Below, piece after piece: positions 11,635-24,961 of a stretch of 64,000 nucleotides of DNA. The first letter of the stretch is position 1, and the number at the start of each line of letters is the position of its first letter. Made by a program: the position numbers and the translations under genes. The notes beneath the pieces were generated by a model, which saw nothing but the letters and a program-made list of their open reading frames with translations, was not told the DNA's origin and ran no database searches. The stretch spans positions 434,001 through 498,000 of the forward strand of contig NZ_BMZM01000003.1 of NCBI RefSeq assembly GCF_014652795.1, given 5' to 3'. Source of the stretch: Kushneria pakistanensis. GTDB lineage: Bacteria; Pseudomonadota; Gammaproteobacteria; Pseudomonadales; Halomonadaceae.

Positions 11635-12453
11635 ATGACGTCAACGCTTGAACAACCGCTGCTGGTGTTTACGGATCTGGATGGCTCCCTGCTGGACCAT
11701 GCCACCTATGACTACACGCCAGCCATGAGCTGGCTTGCGCGCCTTGAAAAGAATGCAGTGCCGCTGATCATCAATACCAGCAAGACGGCGGCGGAAGTCA
11801 TGGTGTTGCATCAGGCACTGGGGCTTGTCTCGCCCTTCATTACCGAAAACGGCGCCTCCATTCATCTGCCGGCCTCCTGGTGTCTTGATGAAACCCCTGA
11901 TGATCGAGGCTGGGCAGACATCGTGCTGGGTGAATCCTACCGTCGAATCCGCAATGTACTGGAAGCCATCAGGGCCACCGAAAGGTTTCAGTTTCGAGGC
12001 TTTGGTGATTTCAGCACTGAGGAAGTGGCCGAACATACCGGTCTTGATACCCAGGACGCAGAGCTTGCCCATCTGCGCGAGGCCTCCGAGCCCCTGATCT
12101 GGGAAGACAGTGATGACGCGCTGGAGCGCTTTCGTCTGCTGTTGATTGGTGCAGGGCTGTCACTGACACAGGGGGGGCGTTTTTATCATGTGCTGGGCGA
12201 CAACAGCGGCAAGGGGCGCGCCATCGCCTGGCTGGTCGACCGCTATCATCTTCTCAAGGGCAGACGCCCTCTGACCGTGGGGCTGGGCGATGGCCCCAAC
12301 GATGTGCCGATGCTGGAAAGTGTCGACAGGGCAGTACTGATTCGCGGCGAACATGATATCGCGATCAATATTGCCGATACCGTCAATCTCTATACAACAA
12401 CACAAAAGGGCCCGGCAGGATGGTCGGAAGGTCTTGATCACTGGCTGGGCTGA
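11635..12453 (+). CDS. HAD-IIB phosphatase, probable glucosyl-3-phosphoglycerate phosphatase
   Basis: Cytoplasmic HAD hydrolase of 272 residues in the mannosyl-3-phosphoglycerate phosphatase (MpgP/YedP) family. Motif I is FTDLDGSLLD (12-21), motif II NTSKT (47-51), then ENGA (71-74) and motif IV GLGDGPNDVPML (216-227), so it should be catalytic. Alone the family would suggest mannosyl-phosphoglycerate as substrate, but the next gene, 21 bases downstream, is a glucosyl-3-phosphoglycerate synthase. The likely reaction is therefore removal of phosphate from glucosyl-3-phosphoglycerate to give glucosylglycerate, a compatible solute. Substrate choice is inferred from context. Confidence 0.8.
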   Translation: MTSTLEQPLLVFTDLDGSLLDHATYDYTPAMSWLARLEKNAVPLIINTSKTAAEVMVLHQALGLVSPFITENGASIHLPASWCLDETPDDRGWADIVLGESYRRIRNVLEAIRATERFQFRGFGDFSTEEVAEHTGLDTQDAELAHLREASEPLIWEDSDDALERFRLLLIGAGLSLTQGGRFYHVLGDNSGKGRAIAWLVDRYHLLKGRRPLTVGLGDGPNDVPMLESVDRAVLIRGEHDIAINIADTVNLYTTTQKGPAGWSEGLDHWLG

Positions 12454-12474
12454 CAGCGACAGGGAGAAGACATC

Positions 12475-13695
12475 ATGAGCGATTTTTACCAGAACGGCAT
12501 TATTACCAACTTCCACAACCTCACGCGGCGCCCGCTTGAGGCACTGGAAAGTGATTTGATGGGTTTCTCGAAGCGCCGCCCGATGGGGCTGATTCTGCCG
12601 TCGCTTTTTTCCGAGCTTGAAGGCCCGGCGCTCACGCGCATCATCGATCAGCTCTCTCATGTCGACTATTTAAGCGAAATCATCATCGGACTGGACCGGG
12701 CCGATCGGGATCAGTTTCTTCGCGCTCGGGACTTCTTTGCCCGCCTGCCACAGCGCCATCGTATTCTCTGGAATGACGGCCCACGCCTGCGGGAACTGGA
12801 TGCCGACCTGGCGGCCGAATCGCTTTCGCCGCCGGCGCCGGGCAAGGGGCGCAATGTCTGGTTCTGCTCGGGATATGCCATCTCCTCCGGTCGTGCCGAA
12901 GCGATAGCGCTGCATGACTGCGATATCACCACCTATGACCGCTCGATGCTGGCGCGCCTGCTCTATCCGGTGGCCAATCCGCACTTCAACTACGAATTCT
13001 GCAAGGGCTATTACGCCCGCATTGCCGAGGGCAAGCTCAACGGCCGGGTCGGGCGGCTGATGGTGACGCCACTGCTGCGCGCACTGAAAAAGATCCACGG
13101 TCCGCTGGATTATCTGAACTACCTCGACAGCTATCGCTATCCGCTGTCGGGCGAGTTCGCCATGCGCGCCGATGTGCTGAACGACATTCGCATTCCCAGC
13201 GACTGGGGGCTCGAGATCGGTGTGCTTTCGGAAGTGCACCGTAATTACTCGACCAAACGCCTGTGTCAGGTCGACATTGCCGACAACTACGACCACAAGC
13301 ATCAGCCGCTCTCGCCGGAAGACGCCTCCACCGGGCTCTATCGCATGAGTACCGACATTGCCAAGGCGCTCTATCGCAAGCTGGCAACGCTGGGTGTGAC
13401 CATGAACGAGGCTCATTTCCGCACGCTCAAGGCCACCTACTACCGCACCGCGCTCGATATCATCGAGAACTATTACCACGATGCGATGATGAATGGTCTC
13501 AAGGTCGATCGTCACAGCGAAGAGCAGGCCGTGGAGCTGTTCGCGCAGAGCATCATGGAAGCCGGGGTTACCTTCCTTGAAAGCCCGCGTGACAAGCCCT
13601 TCATCCCCAGCTGGAGCCGGGTGCAGTCCGCCTTCCCCGATATGCTTGAGCGCATGTATGACGCAGTAGAGGCCGATAACGCCGGCGACGTCTAG
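12475..13695 (+). CDS. gpgS: Glucosyl-3-phosphoglycerate synthase (GT81-like)
   Basis: Retaining GT-A glycosyltransferase of 406 residues that joins glucose from an NDP-glucose to 3-phosphoglycerate. Visible features are GKGRNVW (123-129), the metal-binding DCD in ALHDCDIT (145-152), RYPLSGEFAM (221-230), DWGLEIG (243-249) and the HKH triplet (274-276), which fit GpgS-type enzymes. An excellent AGGGAGAAG precedes the ATG. It follows the phosphatase in the same operon; a dyad and then the Pho box of the secretion operon lie just after it. Mannosyl-3-phosphoglycerate synthases belong to a different family (GT55), so the glucosyl product is favoured. In halophiles glucosylglycerate can serve as an osmolyte, notably when nitrogen is short. 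Confidence 0.82.
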   Translation: MSDFYQNGIITNFHNLTRRPLEALESDLMGFSKRRPMGLILPSLFSELEGPALTRIIDQLSHVDYLSEIIIGLDRADRDQFLRARDFFARLPQRHRILWNDGPRLRELDADLAAESLSPPAPGKGRNVWFCSGYAISSGRAEAIALHDCDITTYDRSMLARLLYPVANPHFNYEFCKGYYARIAEGKLNGRVGRLMVTPLLRALKKIHGPLDYLNYLDSYRYPLSGEFAMRADVLNDIRIPSDWGLEIGVLSEVHRNYSTKRLCQVDIADNYDHKHQPLSPEDASTGLYRMSTDIAKALYRKLATLGVTMNEAHFRTLKATYYRTALDIIENYYHDAMMNGLKVDRHSEEQAVELFAQSIMEAGVTFLESPRDKPFIPSWSRVQSAFPDMLERMYDAVEADNAGDV

Positions 13696-13715: not shown

Positions 13716-13740
13716 CAGTGCCGGCCCTGCGCTGGCACTG
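13716..13740. other. Hairpin between gpgS and the Pho box
   Basis: CAGTGCC (13716-13722) pairs with GGCACTG (13734-13740). There is no T-run, so it is at best a weak terminator. Its right arm overlaps the first three bases of the Pho box, so it may instead affect promoter access. Confidence 0.4.
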
Positions 13741-13755
13741 TCATGTTTCTGTCAT
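13738..13755 (+). promoter_or_regulatory. Pho box (PhoB-binding site) before the type I secretion operon
   Basis: Two exact CTGTCAT heptamers (13738-13744 and 13749-13755) are separated by GTTT. The 11-base period is the one of the E. coli Pho box. It lies 82 bases upstream of the ABC-transporter start and reads in the same direction, so phosphate-starvation induction by PhoB is likely. Confidence 0.8.
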
Positions 13756-13837
13756 GCGTTCTGCTCAGGATGCCCTGTGTCTATCCCCGGGCAGCCGCAG
13801 CAAGCGACGGCAGGGTCAAAAAAAAGCTGAGGTAAGC

Positions 13838-15604
13838 ATGGCAGCAGCGAACACGTCCACTGATCTGGCCCTGGCCCTGAAAGCCTGCCGACGCTCGTTT
13901 GTGTCGGTGGGAGGGTTCAGCATGTGCATCAACCTGTTGATGCTGGTGCCGCCGCTTTACATGCTGCAGGTCTATGACCGGGTCATCACCACGCGCAGTG
14001 TCGACACGCTGATCATGCTCACGCTGATCGTGATGTTTCTGTTTCTGGTCATGGGCGGGCTTGAGCTGGTGCGCTCACGCATTCTGGTGCGCACCGGCAA
14101 TCGATTGGAAACGTTGACGAATACGCGTGTCTACCGGGCCATGTTTCGACGCAGCCTGCTGCGTGGCGGGCAACAGACGGCGCAGCCGCTCAACGACCTC
14201 ACCACGTTGCGTCAGTTTCTGACCGGCAACGGTCTCTTTGCCTTTTTCGACGCGCCGTGGATGCCGGTCTATATCGCCGTACTCTTTTTGTTCAATGTCT
14301 GGTTCGGAGTGTTTGCCATCGTGGCCGGGCTGGTGCTGCTGGCACTGGCGCTGGCCAACGAACGTGCCACGCGCAAGCTGCTGGCCGAGGCCGGCAGCGA
14401 TCAGATTCAGGCCCAGGAGCTGGCCAGTGCCAACCTGCGCAACGCTGAAGTGCTGCACGCAATGGGGATGCTGTCGGGCATCCAGGCGCGCTGGGCGCAG
14501 CGTCATCATGACTATCTGGTTCGCCAGTCGCAGGCCAGCGACCGTGCCGGGACGCTGGCCAACCTGTCCAAGGTGCTGCGACTGGCCTTTCAGTCGTTGA
14601 TTCTGGGGCTGGGCGCCTGGCTGGTGCTACAGGACAGCCTCACCCCCGGCATGATGATTGCGGGGTCCATTCTGATGGGGCGAGCGCTGGCGCCCATCGA
14701 TCAGATGATCGGTGCCTGGAAGGGGTTTGTGAGCGCGCGCTCGGCGCACCAGCGTCTGGAAGCCCTGCTCCGGGAAGTGCCGGCCGAGGAGGAGCGCATG
14801 GCCCTGCCGGCCCCGCGGGGAGATATTCGCGTCGAAGGCGTGTCGGCGGCGCCGCCGGGCGTACGGCTGCCCACGTTGCGGGGCATCAACTTCGTGCTGG
14901 GCCATGGCGAGCAGGTCGGCATTATTGGCCCCAGCGCGTCGGGTAAGTCGACGCTGGCCCGGGTGCTGCTGGGCATCTGGCCGGCCCAGACCGGCACCGT
15001 GCGTCTTGATGGGGTAGATGTTGCCCAGTGGCCGCGTGAAGCACTGGGGCCGCATATCGGCTATCTGCCGCAGGATATTGAGCTCTTTGATGGCACCATC
15101 AGTGACAATATTGCCCGTCTGGGCGAGGTGGATGCCGAGAAGGTGGTCGAAGCTGCCCGCATGGCCGGTGTTCACGAGATGATCCTGCAACAGCCCCAGG
15201 GGTATGACACACCGATTACCTCGGGCGGCGGTGCGCTGTCCGGTGGCCAGCGTCAGCGCATTGGCCTGGCGCGTGCGCTTTACGGCCGGCCTGTCATGGT
15301 GGTGCTCGATGAGCCCAACGCCAGTCTGGATGACAGCGGCGAGCGTGCCCTGATTCAGGCGCTGGCCCGATTGCGGCAGATGAAAACCACCGTGTTTGTC
15401 ATCTCCCATCGACCGGCCACGCTCAAGGCCGTGGACAAGCTGCTGGTGATGAAGGAGGGCCAGATCGGCGCCTTTGGCCCGCGCGATCAGGTTGTGACCC
15501 ATCTTCAGGCGCAAAAGCCGGCCAACGTGCGTCCCATGACATCCGCCGGACCGACGCCACCTGCAGCGCCTGATGCACAGACCACGGCGGCAGGTAACCA
15601 ATGA
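13838..15604 (+). CDS. Type I secretion ABC transporter (PrtD/AprD family)
   Basis: Inner-membrane permease/ATPase that powers one-step export through an adaptor and TolC-like channel. The 588-residue protein has an N-terminal membrane domain beginning LQVYDRVITTRSVDTL, and a C-terminal ATPase: Walker A GPSASGKST (364-372), signature LSGGQ (467-471) and Walker B VMVVLDEP (486-493). It lacks the N-terminal C39-like domain of HlyB/LapB types, as expected for PrtD-like exporters. The ATG at 13838 with GAGGT upstream is preferred to an earlier in-frame ATG at 13718, which would overlap the Pho box. Its stop overlaps the adaptor start (ATGA). The likely cargoes are the two signal-less exoenzymes encoded downstream. 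Confidence 0.92.
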   Translation: MAAANTSTDLALALKACRRSFVSVGGFSMCINLLMLVPPLYMLQVYDRVITTRSVDTLIMLTLIVMFLFLVMGGLELVRSRILVRTGNRLETLTNTRVYRAMFRRSLLRGGQQTAQPLNDLTTLRQFLTGNGLFAFFDAPWMPVYIAVLFLFNVWFGVFAIVAGLVLLALALANERATRKLLAEAGSDQIQAQELASANLRNAEVLHAMGMLSGIQARWAQRHHDYLVRQSQASDRAGTLANLSKVLRLAFQSLILGLGAWLVLQDSLTPGMMIAGSILMGRALAPIDQMIGAWKGFVSARSAHQRLEALLREVPAEEERMALPAPRGDIRVEGVSAAPPGVRLPTLRGINFVLGHGEQVGIIGPSASGKSTLARVLLGIWPAQTGTVRLDGVDVAQWPREALGPHIGYLPQDIELFDGTISDNIARLGEVDAEKVVEAARMAGVHEMILQQPQGYDTPITSGGGALSGGQRQRIGLARALYGRPVMVVLDEPNASLDDSGERALIQALARLRQMKTTVFVISHRPATLKAVDKLLVMKEGQIGAFGPRDQVVTHLQAQKPANVRPMTSAGPTPPAAPDAQTTAAGNQ

Positions 15605-16947
15605 GCCCATCATCCCCCACGTCCGGTGCCTCCTTCATGAACACGCGCGCGGAACTACCCATCAGCGATCGCGGTGCCCGTCGCGCCGGGTTGATCATTG
15701 TCTTGCTGGCCTTTGGCATCTTCGGCGGCTGGGCGATGCTGGCCAATCTGGCGGTGGCCGTCGTGGCCACCGGTACCGTCTCGGTCGAGTCATTCAAAAA
15801 GACCGTACAGCACCTGGAAGGCGGCATTGTCTCGCAGATCAACGTGGATGATGGCGATCATGTCAAGGCCGGCGATGTGCTGATGGTGCTGGATGCCACC
15901 CAGGCGCGTTCCCAGTACGCCATTGCCCGTACCGGCTGGTTCATGGCCAGCGCCGAGGAGGCGCGTCTGATGGCCGAGCAGCAGCGTCTTGATCAGCTCG
16001 AATTTCCCGCCGAGCTGACGGACATGGCCCGGGACCATCCGCGTCTTGCACAGATGCTTCAGGTACAGCAGAGCCTTTTTATCTCTCGCCGTCAGGCTCT
16101 GGAGGGAGAGCTTGAAGGTCTTGACGAGCAAAGCCGGCAGTTTCGCGAGCAGATTTCGGGGCTTGAGCAGACCATGGCCATTAACAACGAGCGCATCGCG
16201 TCACTGCGTGCCGAAGCCGGGGACTATCGCGCCTTGTTCCGTGAAGGGTTGGGCAATAATCAGCGGGTGCGTGAACTCGAGCGCCAGATCATGCAGTTCA
16301 ACTCGGACAGCGCCTCCTCGAAGGCGCAGATTGCCCAGCTGCGCTCACAGATCAGCGAAAATCGGGTCAGGATGGAAACGCGGCGACAGGCGTATCAGCA
16401 GGAGGTGGGGCAGGCGCTGCGTCAGGCGCAGTCCGAGATTGGTGATACTTCCGAGCGCATGACCGCACTGTCCGATCAGATGCGTCGTACCGAGCTTCGG
16501 GCGCCGGTCAGTGGCACGGTTGTGGGACTTGAAACGCATACTCTGGGGGCCGTGCTGGAGCCGGGGCGGCCGGTCATGAATATCGTGCCCAGTGCCGAGG
16601 GCTTTTTGATCGAGACCCGCATTGCCGCTCAGGACATCGATAACATCTACGTCGGTCAGCCTGCCGAGATTCGCTTTAGCGCCTTCAATCAGCGCCGTGC
16701 CAGCGTGGTAGAGGGAGAGTTGATCAACGTTTCGGCCGACAGCTTTCAGGATGAATCCACCGGGGCGTCCTATTACCGGGGGCGAGTGCGGGTCTCCGAG
16801 GCCGGGCAGGAAAGCATGACCGATGAGATGCAGCTGCTCTCGGGCATGCCGGCAGAGGTCATGTTGCGCACCGGTGAAAGGACCCTGATGGGCTATCTCA
16901 TGGCGCCGGTCACCGACATGCTGGCCCGCGCTGTTCGTCAGGATTGA
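15601..16947 (+). CDS. Type I secretion membrane-fusion protein (HlyD/PrtE family)
   Basis: Periplasmic adaptor of 448 residues that joins the ABC transporter to the outer-membrane channel. A single membrane anchor lies at about 28-50. The first half of the barrel-sandwich domain contains HLEGGIVSQI (71-80), then comes a long coiled-coil hairpin rich in Gln, Glu and Arg (about 130-290), then the second lipoyl half (LRAPVSGTVVGL) and a beta-barrel. The start codon overlaps the transporter stop by four bases, showing translational coupling. Neighbours on both sides complete a standard three-part type I system. Confidence 0.92.
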   Translation: MSPSSPTSGASFMNTRAELPISDRGARRAGLIIVLLAFGIFGGWAMLANLAVAVVATGTVSVESFKKTVQHLEGGIVSQINVDDGDHVKAGDVLMVLDATQARSQYAIARTGWFMASAEEARLMAEQQRLDQLEFPAELTDMARDHPRLAQMLQVQQSLFISRRQALEGELEGLDEQSRQFREQISGLEQTMAINNERIASLRAEAGDYRALFREGLGNNQRVRELERQIMQFNSDSASSKAQIAQLRSQISENRVRMETRRQAYQQEVGQALRQAQSEIGDTSERMTALSDQMRRTELRAPVSGTVVGLETHTLGAVLEPGRPVMNIVPSAEGFLIETRIAAQDIDNIYVGQPAEIRFSAFNQRRASVVEGELINVSADSFQDESTGASYYRGRVRVSEAGQESMTDEMQLLSGMPAEVMLRTGERTLMGYLMAPVTDMLARAVRQD

Positions 16948-16950
16948 TCC

Positions 16951-18471
16951 ATGCCTTCGTCTACTTACTCCAGGTCCGGATGTCTGTGTGCGCTGTTGCT
17001 GGGAGCAGTGTGGTTGCCTTCGACGCTCATCGCCGCACCTGCTGTGGCCGATCCTGCACCGGTTCCCCTGACCATGGCAGGCGAGGCGCGAGGGGAAACA
17101 GGACAGGTTGTTGTTCCTTCTCTGCCGGCGTTATACGCCCATGCCCGTGAATACGACGCCGAGCTGCAGCGCCAGTCGCTTGAAGCCGAGGCGTCAGGCC
17201 TTGAAACGTCGCGGGCAAGGGCCGGACTGCTGCCCACCGTGGACCTGACCTATTCGTATGGGTATACCGATAGTGACAACTACTACTCCCGTGGTGCCGA
17301 CTCCTGTGAGGAAAATCCTCGGACCGGTGAATTATTCGGGGGAGATGATTTTGCCGCGCGCTGTCGCGGTCATTCCACGGATAGCACCGCACAGCTACAG
17401 CTGACCCAGCCGCTTTTTTCCATGGAGCGCTGGCGAACGCTGGCACAGTCGCGAGAACAGGTGCAGGCCGCACAGCTCCAGCTGGCGATCGCCGAGCAGC
17501 AGCTGGCACTGGAGACTGCGGACGCCTACATGGCAGGGTTTTATAGCGCCCAGCAGCATCGCCTGCTGGAAGGCAAGCAGCGTGCGCTCGAACTCCAGGT
17601 CAAACAGGCCACGCGCGCCTATGAGCTGGGCATTGGTGATCGTATCGATCTGCTGGCGGCACGCTCCCGACTGGATCAGGCGCATGCCGAAATCGCCCTG
17701 GCCGGCAATGAATACGCTGACGCCCAGGCCCGGCTTGCCCGGCTGACCGGTGAGTCGCCGGACTTTACCCGCTTTTCGCTGCTGGAACTGGCGCAGGCGC
17801 AATGGCCCGAACCCGCCGCACTGGCCGGATTTGAGGACGGCATTGACGACAACGTACAGGTGCGTCTGGCTGATCAGCAGCTCAGAGTGGCTCAGGCCGT
17901 ACAGGCCGTCCGCCAGGGCAGTTATTACCCTGAAGTCTCGCTCAATCTTTCCTGGTCGGATCGCAACAGTGATGACCCCTACCGTGAAAGCGAGGATCGC
18001 TCGGCGGTGATCCAGGCGCGCATGAATCTGTATCGGGGTGGGGCGACCAGCGCCGAGGTGCGCCAGGCCGATCTGCGCCGCCAGGCCCAGAGCGCCGATG
18101 TCCATCAGCAAAAACGCCTGGCGCTGGAGGAACTGCGCCGTCGCCATCGCGGCATTCAGGGCAACCTGTCACGCCTTGAGGCGCTCTCCCAGGCGATCCG
18201 CTCCAGCGAGCTTTATCTGGAAGCCGCCGATCGCGGGGCGGCACTGGGGCTGCGTGATCTCGTGGATGTGCTGGATGCCCGCGCCACGCTTTACGATCAG
18301 CGTATCCAGTATGTCGATGCCTTTCGACAGCTGCTGCTCGACAGGCTTTATCTTCAGGCCGCTGCCGGGCGCCTCGGGACGCAGGACATGACCGACACGA
18401 TGGCGCTGATTGGACAGATCATCGGGCCGCCCCGTGATGATGTGCTGTCGGAAAGCCATGCGCCGTCGTAA
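16951..18471 (+). CDS. TolC-family outer-membrane channel of the type I system (PrtF-like)
   Basis: Outer-membrane/periplasmic tunnel protein of 506 residues. A Sec signal peptide is visible (hydrophobic stretch ending near APAVA, residues 29-33). The rest has the duplicated OEP architecture: LPALYAHAREYDAEL at the first repeat, long Gln/Ala-rich helices and a beta-strand region TVDLTYSYGYTDSDNYYSRG. It starts three bases after the adaptor stop, so the operon is complete. The strand segment near 100-130 has an inserted loop with two Cys (SCEEN and ARCRG), which is unusual for TolC proteins and might form a disulfide at the cell surface. Confidence 0.9.
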   Translation: MPSSTYSRSGCLCALLLGAVWLPSTLIAAPAVADPAPVPLTMAGEARGETGQVVVPSLPALYAHAREYDAELQRQSLEAEASGLETSRARAGLLPTVDLTYSYGYTDSDNYYSRGADSCEENPRTGELFGGDDFAARCRGHSTDSTAQLQLTQPLFSMERWRTLAQSREQVQAAQLQLAIAEQQLALETADAYMAGFYSAQQHRLLEGKQRALELQVKQATRAYELGIGDRIDLLAARSRLDQAHAEIALAGNEYADAQARLARLTGESPDFTRFSLLELAQAQWPEPAALAGFEDGIDDNVQVRLADQQLRVAQAVQAVRQGSYYPEVSLNLSWSDRNSDDPYRESEDRSAVIQARMNLYRGGATSAEVRQADLRRQAQSADVHQQKRLALEELRRRHRGIQGNLSRLEALSQAIRSSELYLEAADRGAALGLRDLVDVLDARATLYDQRIQYVDAFRQLLLDRLYLQAAAGRLGTQDMTDTMALIGQIIGPPRDDVLSESHAPS

Positions 18472-18538
18472 CGAACGGTTACGTATCATTTCCAATCGAT
18501 GCCATTTAAAACCTGAGTGTCACCTCAATGGAGGCAAA

Positions 18539-18578
18539 CCGTCATGGATAGCGGGCGAGCATGACGGTGCATTCTGAG
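18539..18578 (+). promoter_or_regulatory. Upstream element shared with the nuclease gene
   Basis: CCGTCATGGATAGCG (18539-18553) and TGCATTCTGAG (18568-18578) recur with one mismatch each upstream of the nuclease gene (23118-23132 and 23143-23153). Here the first block also forms a dyad with CATGACGG (18560-18567). CCGTCAT resembles a Pho half-site, and a GTGTCAC lies exactly 22 bases (two Pho periods) before it. Confidence 0.45.
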
Positions 18579-18695
18579 AGGCGATCAATGCCTGCAGAAG
18601 CTCGCGGGTACCGGGAAAATCATTTCATGGGTACCTGATCATCATGTCTGCGCCTGATGCGCGACAGGCATGCTTTATCCTCCAGGAGAATGACG

Positions 18696-20363
18696 ATGTT
18701 TGGCTACAGCAACGGCATGTTTGGCAGCACCGGCGCGATGTATGGCAGCAACGCAATGACACTGGGCAGCGCACCTTCTGCGATGTTCTCTCCCTTTCAG
18801 TCACTGTCACCGCTATCAAACCTGTGGTCCGGCAATGATACGCTCTGGGCGTCAGAGCCTGCGCTGGTACCGGCCTTTCTGGATGCCACAAAATCGATTC
18901 TGGATGGCTATAGTCAGGCGCTGGGCCAGTTGAGTGACGCCTTCCGTGACGTGCTGGCTGGCGGCAATGACAAGCCCGGCATGCCTTCTCCTGAAATGCC
19001 GGAGCCTGAAGCCCCTGCCAATGACGGCCTGGCACAGAACGTGATTCTGATGGTGCCGGACGGCTTTGGCACGGATTATTCCACCGCCTTTCGGACCTTC
19101 AAGGGCGGCGAGGAACTGCCGGCCTGGGAAGCAGAGAACATGCTGACCGGCGCCATCAAGACGCATTCTGCCAACTCATTGATTACCGATTCTGCAGCGG
19201 CGGGCACGGCCTTTGCCACGGGTCAGAAAACCGATAACGGCAGGATCTCCACTGCGCCGGACGGCCAGGACCTGGAGTCGATCGTGGATCTGGCCCAGGC
19301 GGCCGGCAAATCCACTGGCGTGGTCTCCACGTCGTCCGTGACCCATGCCACGCCTGCCGTGTTTGGTGCCAATGTGGATGATCGCAACGATGCCACGACC
19401 ATTGCCCAGCAGTTCATCGACAACGATCAGCTTGATGTGATGCTGGGTGGCGGTCTGCAGTACTTCACCTCTGAAGAGAACGGCGGCATGGCTGCCAGCG
19501 ACCTGCTGGTGCAGGCCGAGGCCCAGGGTTATACCTTCGTCGGCAACGCCACCGATCTGGAAAATGCCGAAGGCGATCGTCTGCTGGGGCTGTTCGCGGA
19601 TGATGCGATGGACACCAGCTACGGTGAAAGCGGTGATGACCAGCCGACACTTGCCCAGATGACCCAGACAGCGCTGGACACGCTGTCACAGAATGAAAAC
19701 GGCTTTTTCATGATGGTCGAAGGCAGCCAGATTGACTGGGCCGGACATGCCAACGATGCCGGCTGGGCCATGAACGATTCCCTGGCCTTTGAAGATGCGG
19801 TAAAAACTGCCCAGCAGTTCTCTGAGGAAAACCCGGACACGCTGATCGTGATCGCGCCGGATCATGAAACCGGTGGCATGTCAGCGCAGTCCACGCTGGA
19901 CAACAATGCCTCGATCTATCAGAGCTTCACTGGTACCTACGAGCAGATGTACGACGAGGCCAGCGAGCGTATCGATGTGGCCGGCATGAGCGGTAATGAC
20001 AGCGGTGTTGCCGAGATCATGCAGGACACCGTGGCCGAGATGACCGGCGGTGCCGTTGTGCTTACCGACGAAGAGCTCACGGCAGTACTGTCGGCCGACG
20101 ATGCGGATGCAGGCCTTGCTGCCCTGACGCAGACGCTCAACGAATACGGTGGCATGAGCTTCAGTTCCGACAACCACACGGCCGAAAACGTGCCGCTGTA
20201 TGCCTCCGGCCCGGGTTCTGACATCTTTGCCGGCCTTCTGGACAACACCGAAGTCGGTCAGGGACTGGCTGCGGCCATGGGTCTTGAGTTCTCCGATTTG
20301 CCCACCGTCGATGTCGTGGGTGTCGATACCCAGCTGCAGGGCAGCGAGCTGGCGGTCGCCTGA
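18696..20363 (+). CDS. Alkaline phosphatase (PhoA superfamily) without Sec signal, likely type I substrate
   Basis: A 555-residue phosphomonoesterase. The catalytic domain starts near residue 115: VILMVPDGFG (116-125, metal Asp), the nucleophile Ser166 in TDSAAAGTA (164-172), then GSQIDWAGHAND, IAPDHETGG and SSDNHTAENV. There is no signal peptide; instead the N-terminus has three tandem heptads beginning MFG/MFG/MYG, then a helix and a Pro/Glu linker (about 94-108). The tail GSELAVA is acidic then hydrophobic, as in many type I secretion signals, and no RTX repeats are seen. The ATG at 18696 has AGGAG seven bases away; the ATG at 18690 is too close to it. The gene follows the type I operon, so extracellular release of phosphate from organic esters is the probable role. 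Confidence 0.88.
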   Translation: MFGYSNGMFGSTGAMYGSNAMTLGSAPSAMFSPFQSLSPLSNLWSGNDTLWASEPALVPAFLDATKSILDGYSQALGQLSDAFRDVLAGGNDKPGMPSPEMPEPEAPANDGLAQNVILMVPDGFGTDYSTAFRTFKGGEELPAWEAENMLTGAIKTHSANSLITDSAAAGTAFATGQKTDNGRISTAPDGQDLESIVDLAQAAGKSTGVVSTSSVTHATPAVFGANVDDRNDATTIAQQFIDNDQLDVMLGGGLQYFTSEENGGMAASDLLVQAEAQGYTFVGNATDLENAEGDRLLGLFADDAMDTSYGESGDDQPTLAQMTQTALDTLSQNENGFFMMVEGSQIDWAGHANDAGWAMNDSLAFEDAVKTAQQFSEENPDTLIVIAPDHETGGMSAQSTLDNNASIYQSFTGTYEQMYDEASERIDVAGMSGNDSGVAEIMQDTVAEMTGGAVVLTDEELTAVLSADDADAGLAALTQTLNEYGGMSFSSDNHTAENVPLYASGPGSDIFAGLLDNTEVGQGLAAAMGLEFSDLPTVDVVGVDTQLQGSELAVA

Positions 20364-20453
20364 TCATCGATCAGTGATCCGAGTGGGGCACCGGTTCAGG
20401 AAAACGACAACGAAACGTGCGAGAGACGACAATAAAAAAGACCGCAACGCAAA

Positions 20454-20478
20454 GGGCGCCGTGATGGCGCCCTTTTTT
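20454..20478. terminator. Terminator between alkaline phosphatase and nuclease
   Basis: GGGCGCC/GGCGCCC stem (20454-20460 with 20466-20472), loop GTGAT, followed by six T. It lies between two convergent genes. Confidence 0.85.
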
Positions 20479-20504
20479 GTGGCTGTTGGTGTGGGCTTCA
20501 AGGC

Positions 20505-23060
20505 TCAGAAGCCGACGGCCTGCTGAGCATCAACGCTCGGGTCGATGCCGATGATGATCGGGTCGTGATCCGAAGCACGGAAGGGGCCGTCACCGTAGAG
20601 CGACTCGATCTGTTCGGTCGATTTGTACTCGGTGTTGTAGTCCAGCACGATCGGTTCATCGGCGTTGATATGCCAGGTGGTAACACCGGTGATCTGATCA
20701 CTCATCGATTCACTGGCCAGCGCGTGATCCAGCGAGCCCCACTGGCCGTTAAAGCTGTAGGAGTAGTCGTCATCCAGCAGCGTATAGCCCTCGTTTTGCA
20801 GGGTGGTGATGGGGTCTTCCATGGCGTAGCTGTTGAGATCACCGATGATCAGCACATCGCTGTCACCGCTGCCGGTGGGATCGGTCCCGATCCAGGCGGC
20901 CAGCTGTTCAGCGGCCTCGACCCGGGTCGGGTTGTTGTTGCCCTGGCCGTCACCGATGGCCTCCTCGCCGTTGATCACGCTGCCCTTGGACTTGAAGTGA
21001 TTGACCGCGATCGAGAAGGTTTCACCGCTGTCGTTGTCCGCAAAGGTCTGCAGCATGGGCGCCCGGTTGCCGGTGGCAAAGGCGCCGCTGGTGTTGATGG
21101 CCGCCTCACCTTCAGGGGTCACGCTGTCGCTCTGGTAGATCAGCCCTACGGCAATGGCGTCGCTGCCGGGGGAGACCACGTTGCCGTTCTCGTCGCGGGG
21201 GGTGATGTAATCCCACTGCGCCTGGCCCTGTGCGTTGAGCGCCTCGACCAGTCCGGCAATCGAGCTGTCTGCCCCATAGCCATCGTTGGCGACTTCCATC
21301 AGCCCGGCGATATCGGCACCGCTGTCATTGATGGCACTGACCAGCTTGTCCTGTTGCCGGGTCAGTTCCTGCTCGGTGTTGGCGCCGCGCGGGCTGTGCT
21401 CGGTACCTTCAGGCGTGGTGATCTGATGGCCTGGTTGGTCCAGCGTTTCGAAGTAATTCAGCACGTTGAAGGAGGCCACCTTGAGCGGGGCATCATTCAG
21501 TGCCTGAGCATCGGGCTGATCGGGGCGCGGGTTGGCAGGCTGGAAGTCGAGCCCCTGGTCGCTCTGGATGCGCCATTGCTGGTGGGCAAAATCGAGCACA
21601 CCGGTGGCGTTTGCCAGCGTGTCGCCGCCGCGCAGGGTGTTGTCTGCCGAGAGCGGCTCGCCACCGCGGCCGAACAGGATTTCTTCCGGGTTCTGCGCGT
21701 TGCTGGCGTCATCGAGGATGATCGAGCGGCTTTCGATCTGGTCCAGCCACTGCTGATAGCCGGCCTGATCCGGCGCGTTGATCTCTGTGTACTGCTCAAG
21801 GCGCCCGCCGCTTGAGAGGGTGACCGTGCCGTAACGACCCAGCTCATAGGTGTCGGTGACCGTCAGCGGGGTGCCGTCTTCGCCCGTGATGCTCACGAGC
21901 ATGCTCTCGCGGGCGGAAAGCGTCGACTTGTCCTCGATGGGCAGGTCCAGTTCGGTGATCGTGGGCAGCGGCTGATCCCGGGCGGTGACGTCCAGTGATC
22001 TCACATCGGTCAGCTCGGTCTTGCCCTGGTACTGCTCGACCGTGCCGGTCAGACGGACCCGGTCGCCCACGGTAAAATCGGCCACGTTGCTGTCATCGGG
22101 CAGGTAGACAAAGATCCCCTCGGAAGTCGTCTTGTCACCGTCACGGTCGGCGTCTTCCTCCTGCAGGAAAAAGCCGTTCAGGCCGTTGCGAGCGTCCAGC
22201 GTCACGATGGCCTCGACGCTGACTTCGTCACCCACGCGCTCGCTGCTCATGCCGCTGCCCTGAATCGTGGAAATCAGCTCTACGGGCGGTAGATCCATGT
22301 TGTCTCCGTCATTGTTTGGCACGCCATTGTCCGGTGAATCATCGCCCGGGACCTCGTTGTCAGATGCATCACCCGGGGCGTCCCCATTGCCCAGCCCGTC
22401 GAAGGTGTCCTGCGGGTATTCCTGCCACTGGGACGCCTCGAAGCGGTCATTGCCCTCGGTAATGCTTTCATCACGGCGCAGGGTGACATCGCGGGCAAAG
22501 TACGCGTCATCGCCAATGGTGCCGACGATATCCTGCGTCTCGCCCTCGGCGTTGGTCAAAACGATGGCATCGTTGCCGTTGTAGTTGATGACGCTGCTGG
22601 TGGCATCGCTGCGGTCCAGCATGGCCTGATCGGCCTGGGCGTTGGCCAGCACCAGCGTATCTCCGGGGGCCAGGTTGCTATACCGGGCCAGATCCAGTGT
22701 CGCGTTGGCTTCGGTGTTGCCATTGGAATAGAGCGACAGCGTAAAGCCTTCCAGCGAGAGGTCGCTACCGCCGCGGTTGGTCAGCTCGATCGCCTTGTTG
22801 TAGCCACTGCCTTCGACGTATTCGGTGATCAGCAGTGATCCCGGCGTCGCCGGCGTTTCCGTGGCGGGCGGCTGGGCAGGCGTTGCTGGAAAAAGCCTGT
22901 CGTTGATGCTGTCGAGCAGGCTGTCAAGACGTGTGCGCAGTGACTCGAAGGGTGAGCGCCACTGCTCGGTCCAGTGGGTAACGAGCCCAGGGCCGTGGTT
23001 GAGCTGCTGGGCGTCCTGATGAAAACTCCAGGGCGAGGGGAGACGAGAGAACAATGACAT
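20505..23060 (-). CDS. Large extracellular nuclease: lamin-tail, OB and EEP nuclease domains
   Basis: An 851-residue protein of the ExeM/NucH type that should cut DNA outside the cell. Order of parts: amphipathic helix and Pro/Thr linker (about 30-73), lamin-tail domain (about 73-190, beginning LLITEYVEGSG), acidic Asp/Asn/Pro linker, an OB-like region (VSVEAIVTL to the YQGKTELTDV stretch), then an endonuclease/exonuclease/phosphatase domain with ASFNVLNYF, GLMEVANDG, IIGDLNSYAMEDP, SLDHALAS and ASDHDPIIIGI, all catalytic landmarks. No Sec signal is present, and the C-terminus ends DAQQAVGF with hydrophobic residues. AAGGA lies eight bases before the ATG. Together with the convergent alkaline phosphatase and the type I operon it suggests DNA-phosphate scavenging. 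Related ExeM proteins usually carry a Sec signal, so its loss is notable. Confidence 0.88.
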   Translation of the reverse strand: MSLFSRLPSPWSFHQDAQQLNHGPGLVTHWTEQWRSPFESLRTRLDSLLDSINDRLFPATPAQPPATETPATPGSLLITEYVEGSGYNKAIELTNRGGSDLSLEGFTLSLYSNGNTEANATLDLARYSNLAPGDTLVLANAQADQAMLDRSDATSSVINYNGNDAIVLTNAEGETQDIVGTIGDDAYFARDVTLRRDESITEGNDRFEASQWQEYPQDTFDGLGNGDAPGDASDNEVPGDDSPDNGVPNNDGDNMDLPPVELISTIQGSGMSSERVGDEVSVEAIVTLDARNGLNGFFLQEEDADRDGDKTTSEGIFVYLPDDSNVADFTVGDRVRLTGTVEQYQGKTELTDVRSLDVTARDQPLPTITELDLPIEDKSTLSARESMLVSITGEDGTPLTVTDTYELGRYGTVTLSSGGRLEQYTEINAPDQAGYQQWLDQIESRSIILDDASNAQNPEEILFGRGGEPLSADNTLRGGDTLANATGVLDFAHQQWRIQSDQGLDFQPANPRPDQPDAQALNDAPLKVASFNVLNYFETLDQPGHQITTPEGTEHSPRGANTEQELTRQQDKLVSAINDSGADIAGLMEVANDGYGADSSIAGLVEALNAQGQAQWDYITPRDENGNVVSPGSDAIAVGLIYQSDSVTPEGEAAINTSGAFATGNRAPMLQTFADNDSGETFSIAVNHFKSKGSVINGEEAIGDGQGNNNPTRVEAAEQLAAWIGTDPTGSGDSDVLIIGDLNSYAMEDPITTLQNEGYTLLDDDYSYSFNGQWGSLDHALASESMSDQITGVTTWHINADEPIVLDYNTEYKSTEQIESLYGDGPFRASDHDPIIIGIDPSVDAQQAVGF

Positions 23061-23191: not shown

Positions 23192-24961
23192 TCAAACTTT
23201 CAGCCTGGTCCTCGGCCCCTGGTCCTCATTGATCAGCCAGCAGCTGCGATAGGGTTTGAGCACAGGAGATTCGGCGTCGGGATCAATGCGCCCGAGAAGG
23301 TCACGCCAGTGATGGTTGGCGTAAGCTTCGGGAAGATGCAGCGGATGGGGCTTGTCGGTCACGTTGTGCACGGCCAGCAGGCGTCGGCCGTCAGGCAGCG
23401 GGCCGCGCAGGAAGGCAAAAAAGTGTGGCCCCAGGTCAATGATCTTCTGCGGCGTGTCCGGATGAAAGCAGGGCTCCTCACGACGGACCTTCAGGCGCGC
23501 CGTCAATGCCTCGAACACGATATGGGTCGGTGTGCTGTAGGCCTCCAGCAGTAAATCAAGCGCCTCGCGTTGCCAGCGCTTGCGGTTGATGGCGCGCAGT
23601 CGACCGGTGCGGGTGACGCCTTCATGGTCATTGAGCGTGGCCAGCAGGCTGTGAATATAAACGGCCGGAATGCCCTGCAGGCCCAGCATGATGGTTTGCG
23701 AGCAGATAAAACGGGCGATCTGCCACGCGTCGGCGCCACGTCGTGTCCCCTGGAGGGCATCAAAGTAGGTGATGTTGATCTCGTAGGGCGAGTCCTGGCC
23801 ATCCGGGTCGGTCTTCATGCTGATAAAGCCGCCGAAACGCTGCATCAGCTCCAGCAGGGCGTCGATATCATGACGTGGCAGCAGTCCTTCGAGCGCCCGG
23901 ACACCAACGCCGTCGTGGCTGGCGGTAAAGTTGAGGTAGGTGCAGCCGGTCGGCAACGGGGGCAGGGTGGCGGCCCATTCGGTCAGGGCTCGGGCATCGC
24001 CCGTGGTCAGGGTATGCAGCAACAGCGGCGGCAGGGTGAACTGATAGATGATGTGGGCTTCATCACCGGCTCCGAAGTAGCTCAGATTTTCATGATGCGG
24101 CACGTTGGTTTCGGTCAAAAGCAGTGCCCCGGGCGCCACGTGTTCCATGACGGCGCGCAACAGTCGCACAATGGCATGGGTCTGAGGCAGGTGAATGCAG
24201 CTCGTGCCCAGTGTCTTCCACAGGTAGGCGATGGCATCAAGTCGAATCAGACGCGCGCCCTGGCTCAGGTAGTACAGCAGCACGCCGACCATCTCGATCA
24301 GGACATCGGGGTTGGCAAAGTTGAGATCGATCTGATCCTCGGAGAAGGTCGCCCAGACATGGCGCATGCCGCGCCGCGTCGATACCGGGGTCAAAAGCGG
24401 TGTATTGCGCGGGCGGGTGACGCTGCGCACGTCGGTCTGCTCGGGCAGCTCGATAAAGTAGTCTCGCCCCGGCGGCGTGTCGGCGAGATAGTCGATAAAC
24501 CACAGCGATTCCCGCGAGACATGGTTGATGACCAGGTCAAACATCAGGTTAAAGCGCCCGGCCAGGTGGCGCACCTGTGGCCAGTCGCCGACGCTGGGGC
24601 TGACCCTGCGGTAATGGATGACCGAGAAGCCGTCATCACTGCTCCAGGTGAAAAAGGGCAGGATATGGACGGCACTGAAGGTACCCTCGAGATGCTCGCG
24701 CATGAAGCACTCCAGCACTTCCAGCGGGACGCTGTCCTCGCCTTCGATGATGCTGTCGCCATAGGTGATCATCATCTGGGTCTGCTCGCTCCATAGCGGG
24801 CGTGGCTCGCAAGTGACCCCTTGCTGATGCTGGGTGATCAGCGCTTCCAGGCGTTGCAGAATGTCAGGGGCGTGTTCGCCGTAGACAAGGTTCAGTTCGA
24901 CACGGGCACGGGCGAGGAAATCACTGCGGGAAAGCGGTATGGCAGGAGAGGCGGCAGACAT
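23192..24961 (-). CDS. GH13_18-like sugar phosphorylase (sucrose or glucosylglycerate phosphorylase)
   Basis: Cytoplasmic 589-residue glycoside phosphorylase. The alpha-amylase-fold motifs are DLVINHVS (142-149), nucleophile Asp242 in IRLDAIAYLW, acid/base Glu284 in LLTETNVPHH, and TASHDGVGVR (346-355). The subfamily includes sucrose phosphorylase, glucosylglycerate phosphorylase (E. coli YcjM) and sucrose-6-phosphate phosphorylase; which sugar is used here cannot be read directly. Because a glucosylglycerate synthesis pair lies 10 kb away and no sucrose genes are visible, phosphorolysis of glucosylglycerate to glucose-1-phosphate and glycerate is a reasonable guess. A GGAG lies eight bases before the ATG. 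The gene lies upstream of the nuclease gene on the same strand with a 131-base gap. Confidence 0.85.
   Translation of the reverse strand: MSAASPAIPLSRSDFLARARVELNLVYGEHAPDILQRLEALITQHQQGVTCEPRPLWSEQTQMMITYGDSIIEGEDSVPLEVLECFMREHLEGTFSAVHILPFFTWSSDDGFSVIHYRRVSPSVGDWPQVRHLAGRFNLMFDLVINHVSRESLWFIDYLADTPPGRDYFIELPEQTDVRSVTRPRNTPLLTPVSTRRGMRHVWATFSEDQIDLNFANPDVLIEMVGVLLYYLSQGARLIRLDAIAYLWKTLGTSCIHLPQTHAIVRLLRAVMEHVAPGALLLTETNVPHHENLSYFGAGDEAHIIYQFTLPPLLLHTLTTGDARALTEWAATLPPLPTGCTYLNFTASHDGVGVRALEGLLPRHDIDALLELMQRFGGFISMKTDPDGQDSPYEINITYFDALQGTRRGADAWQIARFICSQTIMLGLQGIPAVYIHSLLATLNDHEGVTRTGRLRAINRKRWQREALDLLLEAYSTPTHIVFEALTARLKVRREEPCFHPDTPQKIIDLGPHFFAFLRGPLPDGRRLLAVHNVTDKPHPLHLPEAYANHHWRDLLGRIDPDAESPVLKPYRSCWLINEDQGPRTRLKV

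What the first reader, a model, noticed from the sequence alone, without database searches (positions are those of the whole stretch)
13738..23060. Phosphate-controlled type I secretion with two exoenzymes
An exact CTGTCAT-N4-CTGTCAT Pho box stands 82 bases before a complete ABC-HlyD-TolC operon. Right behind it are an alkaline phosphatase and a large nuclease, both without Sec signals and both ending in hydrophobic tails. The logic is a phosphate-starvation scavenging island: export system, DNA-cutting enzyme and phosphate-releasing enzyme in one 9.3-kb block.
Basis: partly seen in the sequence, partly recalled or inferred. Interest (0 to 1): 0.75.

Follow-up and report, generated by a model that had tools for sequence, protein, structure and literature searches.

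The report
Phosphate-starvation export system for phosphorus enzymes
A salt-loving bacterium appears to switch on a dedicated protein exporter when phosphate runs out, to send DNA-cutting and phosphate-freeing enzymes outside the cell; relatives keep the same idea but swap in unrelated enzymes.

Summary
Confirmed. The window is a Kushneria chromosome. A perfect Pho box (13738-13755), the only exact one in 3.52 Mb, precedes a complete PrtD-type type I secretion operon. The box is exact in all 3 of 10 sampled Kushneria genomes that carry the operon here, while its flanks diverged. PhoA and the ExeM/NucH-type nuclease have no Sec-like start and no cysteine. T1SS-linked nuclease relatives are cysteine-free over the aligned part in 10 of 10 rows; of 83 unlinked rows, 66 have cysteines there and 55 a Sec-like segment. 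In other Halomonadaceae the transporter-nuclease pair stands beside an unrelated phosphoesterase: 5'-nucleotidase, or a phytase-like/EEP fusion. A third likely client elsewhere in this genome is an RTX glycerophosphodiesterase. So this looks like a phosphorus-scavenging secretion island. Corrections: the nuclease is convergent, with no Pho box, and PhoA probably has its own promoter. Pho-controlled phoA-nucH and PhoB-controlled T1SS are each known; joining exporter and scavenging enzymes is the new part. Export and phosphate control are inferred, not shown.

The parts
13738..13755 (+). Pho box, two CTGTCAT repeats with a 4-base spacer
   Evidence: exact; only exact match in the genome; exact in G036 and G050 at the same gene, flanks diverged; 0 of 400 shuffles as good in each
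13766..13771 (+). -10-like CAGGAT, 10 bases after the Pho box
   Evidence: read; CA[GC]GAT in the three genomes aligned; the 10-base distance as a PhoB-promoter feature is recalled
13838..15604 (+). PrtD-type T1SS ABC transporter, 588 aa
   Evidence: TIGR01842 776.8 bits, cut-off 510.15; only match over that cut-off listed for this genome
15601..16947 (+). HlyD/PrtE-type membrane fusion protein, 448 aa
   Evidence: TIGR01843 387.8 bits, cut-off 208.65
16951..18471 (+). TolC/PrtF-type outer membrane protein, 506 aa
   Evidence: PF02321 189.5 bits, cut-off 22; TIGR01844 217 bits, just under its cut-off 225.15; Sec-like start
18519..18545 (+). conserved GTCAY-N17-GTCAT element upstream of PhoA, candidate own promoter element (function inferred)
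   Evidence: present in 5 of 5 Kushneria PhoA upstream regions, 2 of them from genomes without the transporter
18690..20363 (+). signal-less, cysteine-free alkaline phosphatase PhoA, 557 aa; the only PF00245 match in the genome
   Evidence: PF00245 277.3 bits; start from alignment; Cys 0; no Sec-like start
20454..20478 (.). hairpin GGGCGCC-GTGAT-GGCGCCC with T-run between the convergent genes, likely a terminator
   Evidence: read by eye; one search lists a nearby terminator-like site on the - strand
20505..23060 (-). signal-less, cysteine-free ExeM/NucH-type nuclease with lamin-tail domain, 851 aa
   Evidence: NF033681 612 bits, cut-off 300; PF00932 and PF19580; Cys 0; no Sec-like start

Best explanation
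This is a phosphorus-scavenging type I secretion island. When phosphate is short, phosphorylated PhoB binds the Pho box and turns on prtDEF (inferred from the box and its conservation). PrtD, PrtE and PrtF then carry cysteine-free, signal-less enzymes from the cytoplasm to the outside in one step, using C-terminal signals (inferred). Outside, the ExeM/NucH-type nuclease cuts extracellular DNA or RNA and PhoA takes phosphate off the products (inferred from the families). An RTX glycerophosphodiesterase encoded elsewhere probably uses the same exporter and would feed GlpT, beside whose gene Pho-box-like repeats also lie. PhoA may be transcribed partly from the operon and partly from its own conserved promoter. 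What controls the nuclease is unknown.
For: Pho box exact and unique in the genome, conserved with diverged flanks in 3 of 3 genomes. The genome encodes PhoB, and sites with up to 2 mismatches stand by phoB, phoU, glpT and a PhnD-like gene. Both enzymes: no Sec-like start, no cysteine. Linked nucleases: 10 of 10 without cysteine in the aligned part, 0 of 10 with a Sec-like segment; unlinked rows 17 of 83 and 55 of 83. Of 18 genomes with a nuclease at 51% identity or more, 14 hold a PrtD, and in 10 of these 14 the two lie within 10 kb (chance about 4e-17 if genomes were independent). The phosphoesterase partner changes between lineages. The signal-less 5'-nucleotidase, matched in 5 of 151 genomes, is beside PrtD and the nuclease in 5 of 5. 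Two Sec-less, cysteine-free nucleases from outside the family carry RTX repeats over cut-off (L169, L130). GDPD-RTX is whole in 2 of 3 Kushneria genomes with the linked operon and in 0 of 7 others.
Against: G061 keeps whole PhoA and nuclease with no PrtD over cut-off in a one-contig genome. The nuclease catalytic part is under purifying selection also in genomes without PrtD: dN/dS to the window 0.11 (G015), 0.12 (G097), 0.13 (G061), 0.22 (G072), against 0.14 and 0.19 for G036 and G050, which have it. No Pho box at the nuclease, and none of canonical form at PhoA. GDPD-RTX has no Pho box up to 3 mismatches and is missing in G036, which has the exporter. Outside Kushneria the transporter promoters lack a clear Pho box; only weaker ones stand before the 5'-nucleotidase-prtDEF operons. 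Neither PhoA nor nuclease has RTX repeats. Of five outside nucleases scanned, L147 had only a sub-cut-off RTX match and L152 and L192 none. Sec absence rests on a simple hydrophobicity rule, not SignalP.
Confidence: 0.75

Rival explanations
1. The transporter exports something else (for example only the RTX glycerophosphodiesterase, or an unseen small protein), and PhoA and the nuclease leave by another route or by lysis.
For: An RTX GDPD exists elsewhere in the genome. G061 keeps both enzymes without PrtD. A second, more distant T1SS-like ABC transporter (about 325 bits to TIGR01842, under cut-off; probably LssB/LapB-type, not tested) is present in G000, G061, G015 and others and might substitute.
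Against: Recurrent T1SS-nuclease linkage in 5 genera, absence of cysteines and Sec-like segments in the linked nucleases, and the same for the 5'-nucleotidases, 0 Cys in 5 of 5. G036 has the transporter and both enzymes but no GDPD-RTX.
Confidence: 0.15
2. The enzymes are exported by this T1SS, but only the transporter answers to phosphate; the nuclease (and perhaps PhoA) is constitutive or under another regulator, so the exporter is the gate. (A sub-case of the best explanation, so the two confidences overlap.)
For: Only the transporter has a Pho box; no site up to 2 mismatches at PhoA or the nuclease in the Kushneria genomes scanned, nor a convincing matrix score.
Against: PhoA carries a conserved pair of half-site-like GTCAY/GTCAT motifs 22 bases apart in 5 of 5 genomes, which could be a weak PhoB element.
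Confidence: 0.4
3. The cluster is a chance neighbourhood of unrelated genes.
For: The three units need not share one promoter, and 7 of 10 sampled Kushneria genomes lack the transporter at this place.
Against: 10 of 14 genomes holding both have them within 10 kb, in different gene neighbourhoods; the exact Pho box is conserved.
Confidence: 0.03

Closest known systems
Synechocystis PCC 6803 phoA-nucH operon (SphR/Pho regulon; PMC1906773, passages seen)
   Same: Alkaline phosphatase and NucH-type extracellular nuclease gene pair switched on at low phosphate
   Different: There a two-gene operon with a cyanobacterial Pho box; a search of that text for 'secretion' found nothing. Here a T1SS operon carries the Pho box and the nuclease is convergent
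Pseudomonas aeruginosa EddA-EddB (PMC3572637 and PMC4899797, passages seen)
   Same: Extracellular phosphatase plus ExeM-related DNase gene pair used to live on DNA; the DNase is made at low phosphate
   Different: EddA is PhoD-like and leaves by Tat and type II secretion; here the phosphatase is PhoA-family, signal-less and T1SS-linked
PhoB-controlled T1SS or RTX clients: E. coli O157:H7 RTX operon, Synechocystis slr1651 cluster, P. putida BIRD-1 PPUBIRD1_0849/0850 (PMC12846084 and PMC11126600, passages; PMC5082522, passages and section 12)
   Same: Type I exporter or its RTX client under PhoB(R)
   Different: Clients named in the first two are RTX toxin-like proteins and none is given in the table for P. 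putida; here the predicted clients are phosphoesterases, two of them beside the exporter
Secreted glycerophosphodiesterases GlpQI/GlpQII of Pseudomonas (PMC5438359, passages seen)
   Same: Extracellular GDPD used to obtain phosphorus from phospholipid head groups at low phosphate
   Different: No type I secretion or RTX is mentioned there (text search), and the GlpQII cluster has predicted signal peptides; the Kushneria GDPD has RTX and DUF4214 domains and no Sec-like start
PrtDEF/AprDEF-type T1SS (TIGR01842/01843/01844)
   Same: Same transporter family and gene order
   Different: Classical clients are RTX proteases, lipases and HasA (recalled); PhoA and the nuclease here have no RTX repeats

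Membership tests
PrtDEF-type type I secretion system | ABC subunit over the TIGR01842 cut-off | tested here: met
   776.8 bits, cut-off 510.15
PrtDEF-type type I secretion system | HlyD-type adaptor over the TIGR01843 cut-off | tested here: met
   387.8 bits, cut-off 208.65
PrtDEF-type type I secretion system | TolC-type channel over the TIGR01844 cut-off | tested here: inconclusive
   217 bits against 225.15; PF02321 clearly met
PhoB (Pho) regulon member (prtDEF) | Pho box upstream, conserved in relatives | tested here: met
   within Kushneria only
PhoB (Pho) regulon member (prtDEF) | PhoB encoded in the genome | tested here: met
   TIGR02154 355.3 bits, cut-off 296.2
PhoB (Pho) regulon member (prtDEF) | phosphate- and PhoB-dependent expression | not testable with these tools
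   needs an experiment
Pho regulon membership of the nuclease gene | Pho box upstream of the nuclease | tested here: not met
   none up to 2 mismatches; one 3-mismatch match at the start codon; matrix p 0.383 in the window
Pho regulon membership of the PhoA gene | Pho box upstream of PhoA | tested here: inconclusive
   no canonical box (p 0.647 in the window); conserved 22-base-spaced half-site pair; read-through from prtDEF possible
T1SS substrate (PhoA, nuclease) | no Sec/Tat-like N-terminus | tested here: met
   hydrophobicity rule with PrtF as control; relatives; SignalP not available
T1SS substrate (PhoA, nuclease) | few or no cysteines | tested here: met
   0 and 0; at the rate of 0.99% in 26 other window genes zero would have p 0.004 and 0.0002
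T1SS substrate (PhoA, nuclease) | functional C-terminal secretion signal | not testable with these tools
   needs fusions
RTX protein | nonapeptide repeats (PF00353) | tested here: not met
   absent from PhoA and nuclease; present in GDPD, 23.2 bits at cut-off 23
ExeM/NucH nuclease family | NF033681 over cut-off | tested here: met
   612 bits, cut-off 300
ExeM-GG (Shewanella ExeM proper) | NF033680 over cut-off | tested here: not met
   355.9 bits, cut-off 1300
Alkaline phosphatase PhoA family | PF00245 over cut-off | tested here: met
   277.3 bits, cut-off 24.4
E. coli-type PhoA (NF007810) | NF007810 over cut-off | tested here: not met
   157.8 bits, cut-off 540
EddAB system | phosphatase of the PhoD family, Tat-exported | tested here: not met
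   here PF00245, no Sec-like start

The most novel reading that the evidence does not exclude
A phosphorus-dedicated type I secretion system: an exporter whose client set is defined by function rather than by homology. Across Halomonadaceae, unrelated phosphoesterases (PhoA, 5'-nucleotidase, phytase-like/EEP fusion, perhaps SurE-SurE-RTX and RTX glycerophosphodiesterase) were each made signal-less and nearly cysteine-free and most of them joined to the same PrtDEF-nuclease pair. In Kushneria the exporter, not the enzymes, carries the strong Pho box, so secretion itself is the phosphate-gated step.
Probability: 0.45. Interest if true: 0.68.

Novelty: new variant of a known kind. Interest (0 to 1): 0.52.

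Why it matters
Phosphatases and nucleases of phosphate-starved bacteria are mostly discussed as Sec/Tat plus type II exports (recalled, with the Pseudomonas papers cited). An island that instead bundles a Pho-boxed type I exporter with cysteine-free phosphoesterases, and swaps the phosphoesterase between lineages, gives another route for organic-phosphorus use in saline habitats. It also supplies secreted PhoA and nuclease candidates, and natural cases of one nuclease family in Sec-type and T1SS-type forms for studying how a protein changes export route.

Tried and rejected
Own Pho boxes at PhoA and nuclease: none convincing; three ATGAC motifs upstream of the nuclease (read by eye) are not all conserved in the alignment. 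Simple story 'loss of T1SS means decay of clients': only partly true. In Kushneria both enzymes are whole in 3 of 3 genomes with the linked T1SS and in 1 of 7 without (one-sided p 0.033, no correction for kinship), but the nuclease of T1SS-less genomes is still under purifying selection. One clade of nuclease-linked PrtD: rejected, at least 3 changes of the label are forced (36 rows, chiefly the PrtD most similar to the window's, not all of those; L094 and L118 dropped as duplicates, L204 also dropped). A structure of the nuclease was sought but the job was interrupted, so no fold evidence is used. Solved structures by sequence: PhoA has relatives, the nuclease none at E 0.01. Rfam found nothing in the window at gathering scores. 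The signal-less PhoA matched only G000, G015, G036 and one distant genome in 390 genomes of the order, so it is no wide marker of such islands.

Error and label notes: the row 'L081 PhoA' was out of frame and is replaced; pI 4.05 looks like the floor of the program, so read it only as very acidic; the site of L030 was called pstS-like in the script and in my note, and is phnS2-like; the G015 PhoA region was taken from an internal start (corrected). One search dropped 4 rows at contig ends (L135, L141, L143, L173) and contains four pairs that appear to be the same genome twice (L120/L078, L121/L077, L122/L084, L125/L076); the window itself is not among its 10 linked rows and was scored for Sec only.
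Full report
What is there. The genes at 13838-18471 are a contiguous PrtD-PrtE-PrtF type I secretion operon, followed on the same strand by PhoA (18690-20363) and, convergent, an ExeM/NucH-type nuclease (20505-23060, - strand). The block stands between the convergent genes gpgS and a sucrose-phosphorylase-like gene; in same-genus genome G082 the ends of these two genes lie 393 bases apart (L208; the phosphorylase recognised by eye), so the block is an island.

The Pho box. It is exact and unique in the genome; about 0.01-0.02 exact sites are expected from base composition. Thirty of the 51 sites with up to two mismatches were held as loci. Of nine neighbouring proteins that I chose from these and scanned, five are phosphorus genes: PhoB, PhoU and GlpT over their cut-offs, a PhnD-like protein over the subfamily cut-off, and a phnS2-like protein under its cut-off; the other four are not. 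The two glpT sites lie in reverse orientation to glpT. In G036 and G050, the two other sampled Kushneria genomes with the linked operon, the box is also exact, while much of the surrounding intergenic sequence differs. A matrix built from five other sites of this genome, not from prtD, scores these three boxes above all of 400 shuffles.

Promoters of the enzymes. Among the 31 regions scored, neither PhoA nor the nuclease has a convincing box in Kushneria (lowest p 0.048, G036 nuclease). PhoA has a conserved upstream block with GTCAY-N17-GTCAT in 5 of 5 genomes, including G061 and G015, which lack the transporter. The pattern occurs 15 times in 785 kb of strand sequence, these five included, and 4 times in the window against 0.34 expected, so it is uncommon but not unique; its meaning is inferred. 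Outside Kushneria, weaker Pho-like boxes stand in the divergent nuclease/5'-nucleotidase region, reading towards the 5'-nucleotidase-prtDEF operon: G141 0 of 400 shuffles, G131 p 0.003, Halomonas sp. Y3 0.003, G010 0.013, G143 0.05. These are related genomes, and Y3 aligns with an offset. Other regions under 0.05 there were the G009 prtD and nuclease, G141 prtD and G046 SurE regions (0.033-0.048), about what 31 tests give by chance plus a little.

Export route. The window PhoA and nuclease have no cysteine and no Sec-like start, whereas PrtF scores as one. Among 93 usable nuclease rows, the 10 with a linked PrtD have 0 Sec-like segments and 10 of 10 no cysteine in the aligned part (9 of 10 none at all); the 83 others have 55 and 17 (Fisher p 6e-5 and 1e-6; kinship not corrected). 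Other Halomonadaceae nucleases without a linked transporter are also Sec-less, and most are cysteine-free; of their genomes G046, G104 and G121 have a PrtD elsewhere. Of five nucleases with no cysteine in the aligned part from outside the family that were scanned, L169 and L130 carry RTX repeats over cut-off, L147 a match just under it, L152 and L192 none.

Recurrence with swapped enzymes. Eighteen of 151 family genomes hold a nuclease at 51% identity or more; 14 of these hold a PrtD, within 10 kb in 10. The third gene differs: PhoA in G000, G036 and G050; a 5'-nucleotidase-like protein in G009, G010, G131, G141, G143 and Halomonas sp. Y3; a phytase-like/EEP fusion in G074; none seen in the stretch held for G003. 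G046 has no transporter in the stretch held but carries PhoA, the nuclease, a SurE-SurE-RTX protein and a phytase-like protein side by side. The 5'-nucleotidase is matched in 5 of 151 genomes, each time in such an island. The PrtD tree does not make the linked transporters one clade; four label changes are needed, which allows several joinings, or one old joining with losses.

A third client. In this genome RTX repeats were found in an 8538-residue open frame just upstream of a second, more distant T1SS-like transporter and in one 679-residue protein. The latter is GDPD-RTX-DUF4214 at G000:C2:314418-316454, without a Sec-like start and with one cysteine. It is whole in G000 and G050, a 94-residue remnant in G015, and unmatched in the other 7 Kushneria genomes, G036 included; five genomes of other genera match it over the first 400 residues or less. 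It has no Pho box up to 3 mismatches.

Results against. G061 holds whole PhoA and nuclease without a PrtD. In G015 the PhoA frame is interrupted near residue 54; in G072 only PhoA pieces remain and the nuclease is N-truncated; G097 and G090 lack PhoA and have N-truncated nucleases (G090 does have an unlinked PrtD); G082 and G103 have neither enzyme. Yet the nuclease of PrtD-less G015, G061 and G097 is still constrained (dN/dS 0.11-0.13 to the window, 0.22 for G072). Thus dependence on the linked transporter is likely but not proved.

Known background. Pho-controlled phoA-nucH is known in Synechocystis, phosphate-responsive EddB with EddA in P. aeruginosa, secreted GDPD in Pseudomonas, and PhoB(R)-dependent T1SS or RTX clients in three systems. 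Ten literature searches of open-licence papers showed, in the rows listed and the passages read, no report of a T1SS beside these enzymes in Halomonadaceae; the library is limited and most hits were seen as listings only. Verdict: real, ordinary in its parts, new in its combination.

Noticed in passing
L213:2419-4458 (G000:C2:314418-316454): Signal-less glycerophosphodiesterase with RTX and DUF4214 domains, whole only in the two Kushneria genomes G000 and G050, both with the linked T1SS; its N-terminus MPLFDR resembles the nuclease N-terminus MSLFSR.
   Followed up: partly
L081:4850-7330 (G046): Tandem SurE-SurE-RTX fusion, i.e. a normally intracellular nucleotidase fold apparently turned into a type I exoenzyme, next to a signal-less phytase-like protein, PhoA and the nuclease.
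   Followed up: partly
L074:11157-16007, L079:8589-13415, L085:8088-12773: Long forms of the nuclease (1561-1616 aa) carry an extra N-terminal region with weak DUF3616 matches; in L085 also DUF4214 repeats.
   Followed up: partly
L201:10023-13529, L202:8151-11527: In G046 and G090 the unlinked PrtD sits beside a gene that looks like an exopolysaccharide-type sugar transferase (by eye), suggesting another use of this transporter family.
   Followed up: no
L087:17353-18766 (G010): The prtE homologue is split into two overlapping frames in one of the four g11 islands; a real break or a sequencing error.
   Followed up: no
window 11635-13695 and 23192-24961: The island separates a glucosylglycerate-type gene pair (MPGP-like phosphatase, GpgS) from a sucrose-phosphorylase-like gene on the other strand; the three may belong to one osmolyte pathway.
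   Followed up: no
L147:5096-12199 and L152:9113-20819 (Nostocales): Cyanobacterial neighbourhoods with a NucH-type nuclease beside large phytase-like frames, in L147 also a 5'-nucleotidase; a possible parallel phosphorus exoenzyme island.
   Followed up: partly
L002 and L003, site at 1501-1518: Overlapping tandem Pho-box-like repeats near glpT in reverse orientation to the gene.
   Followed up: no
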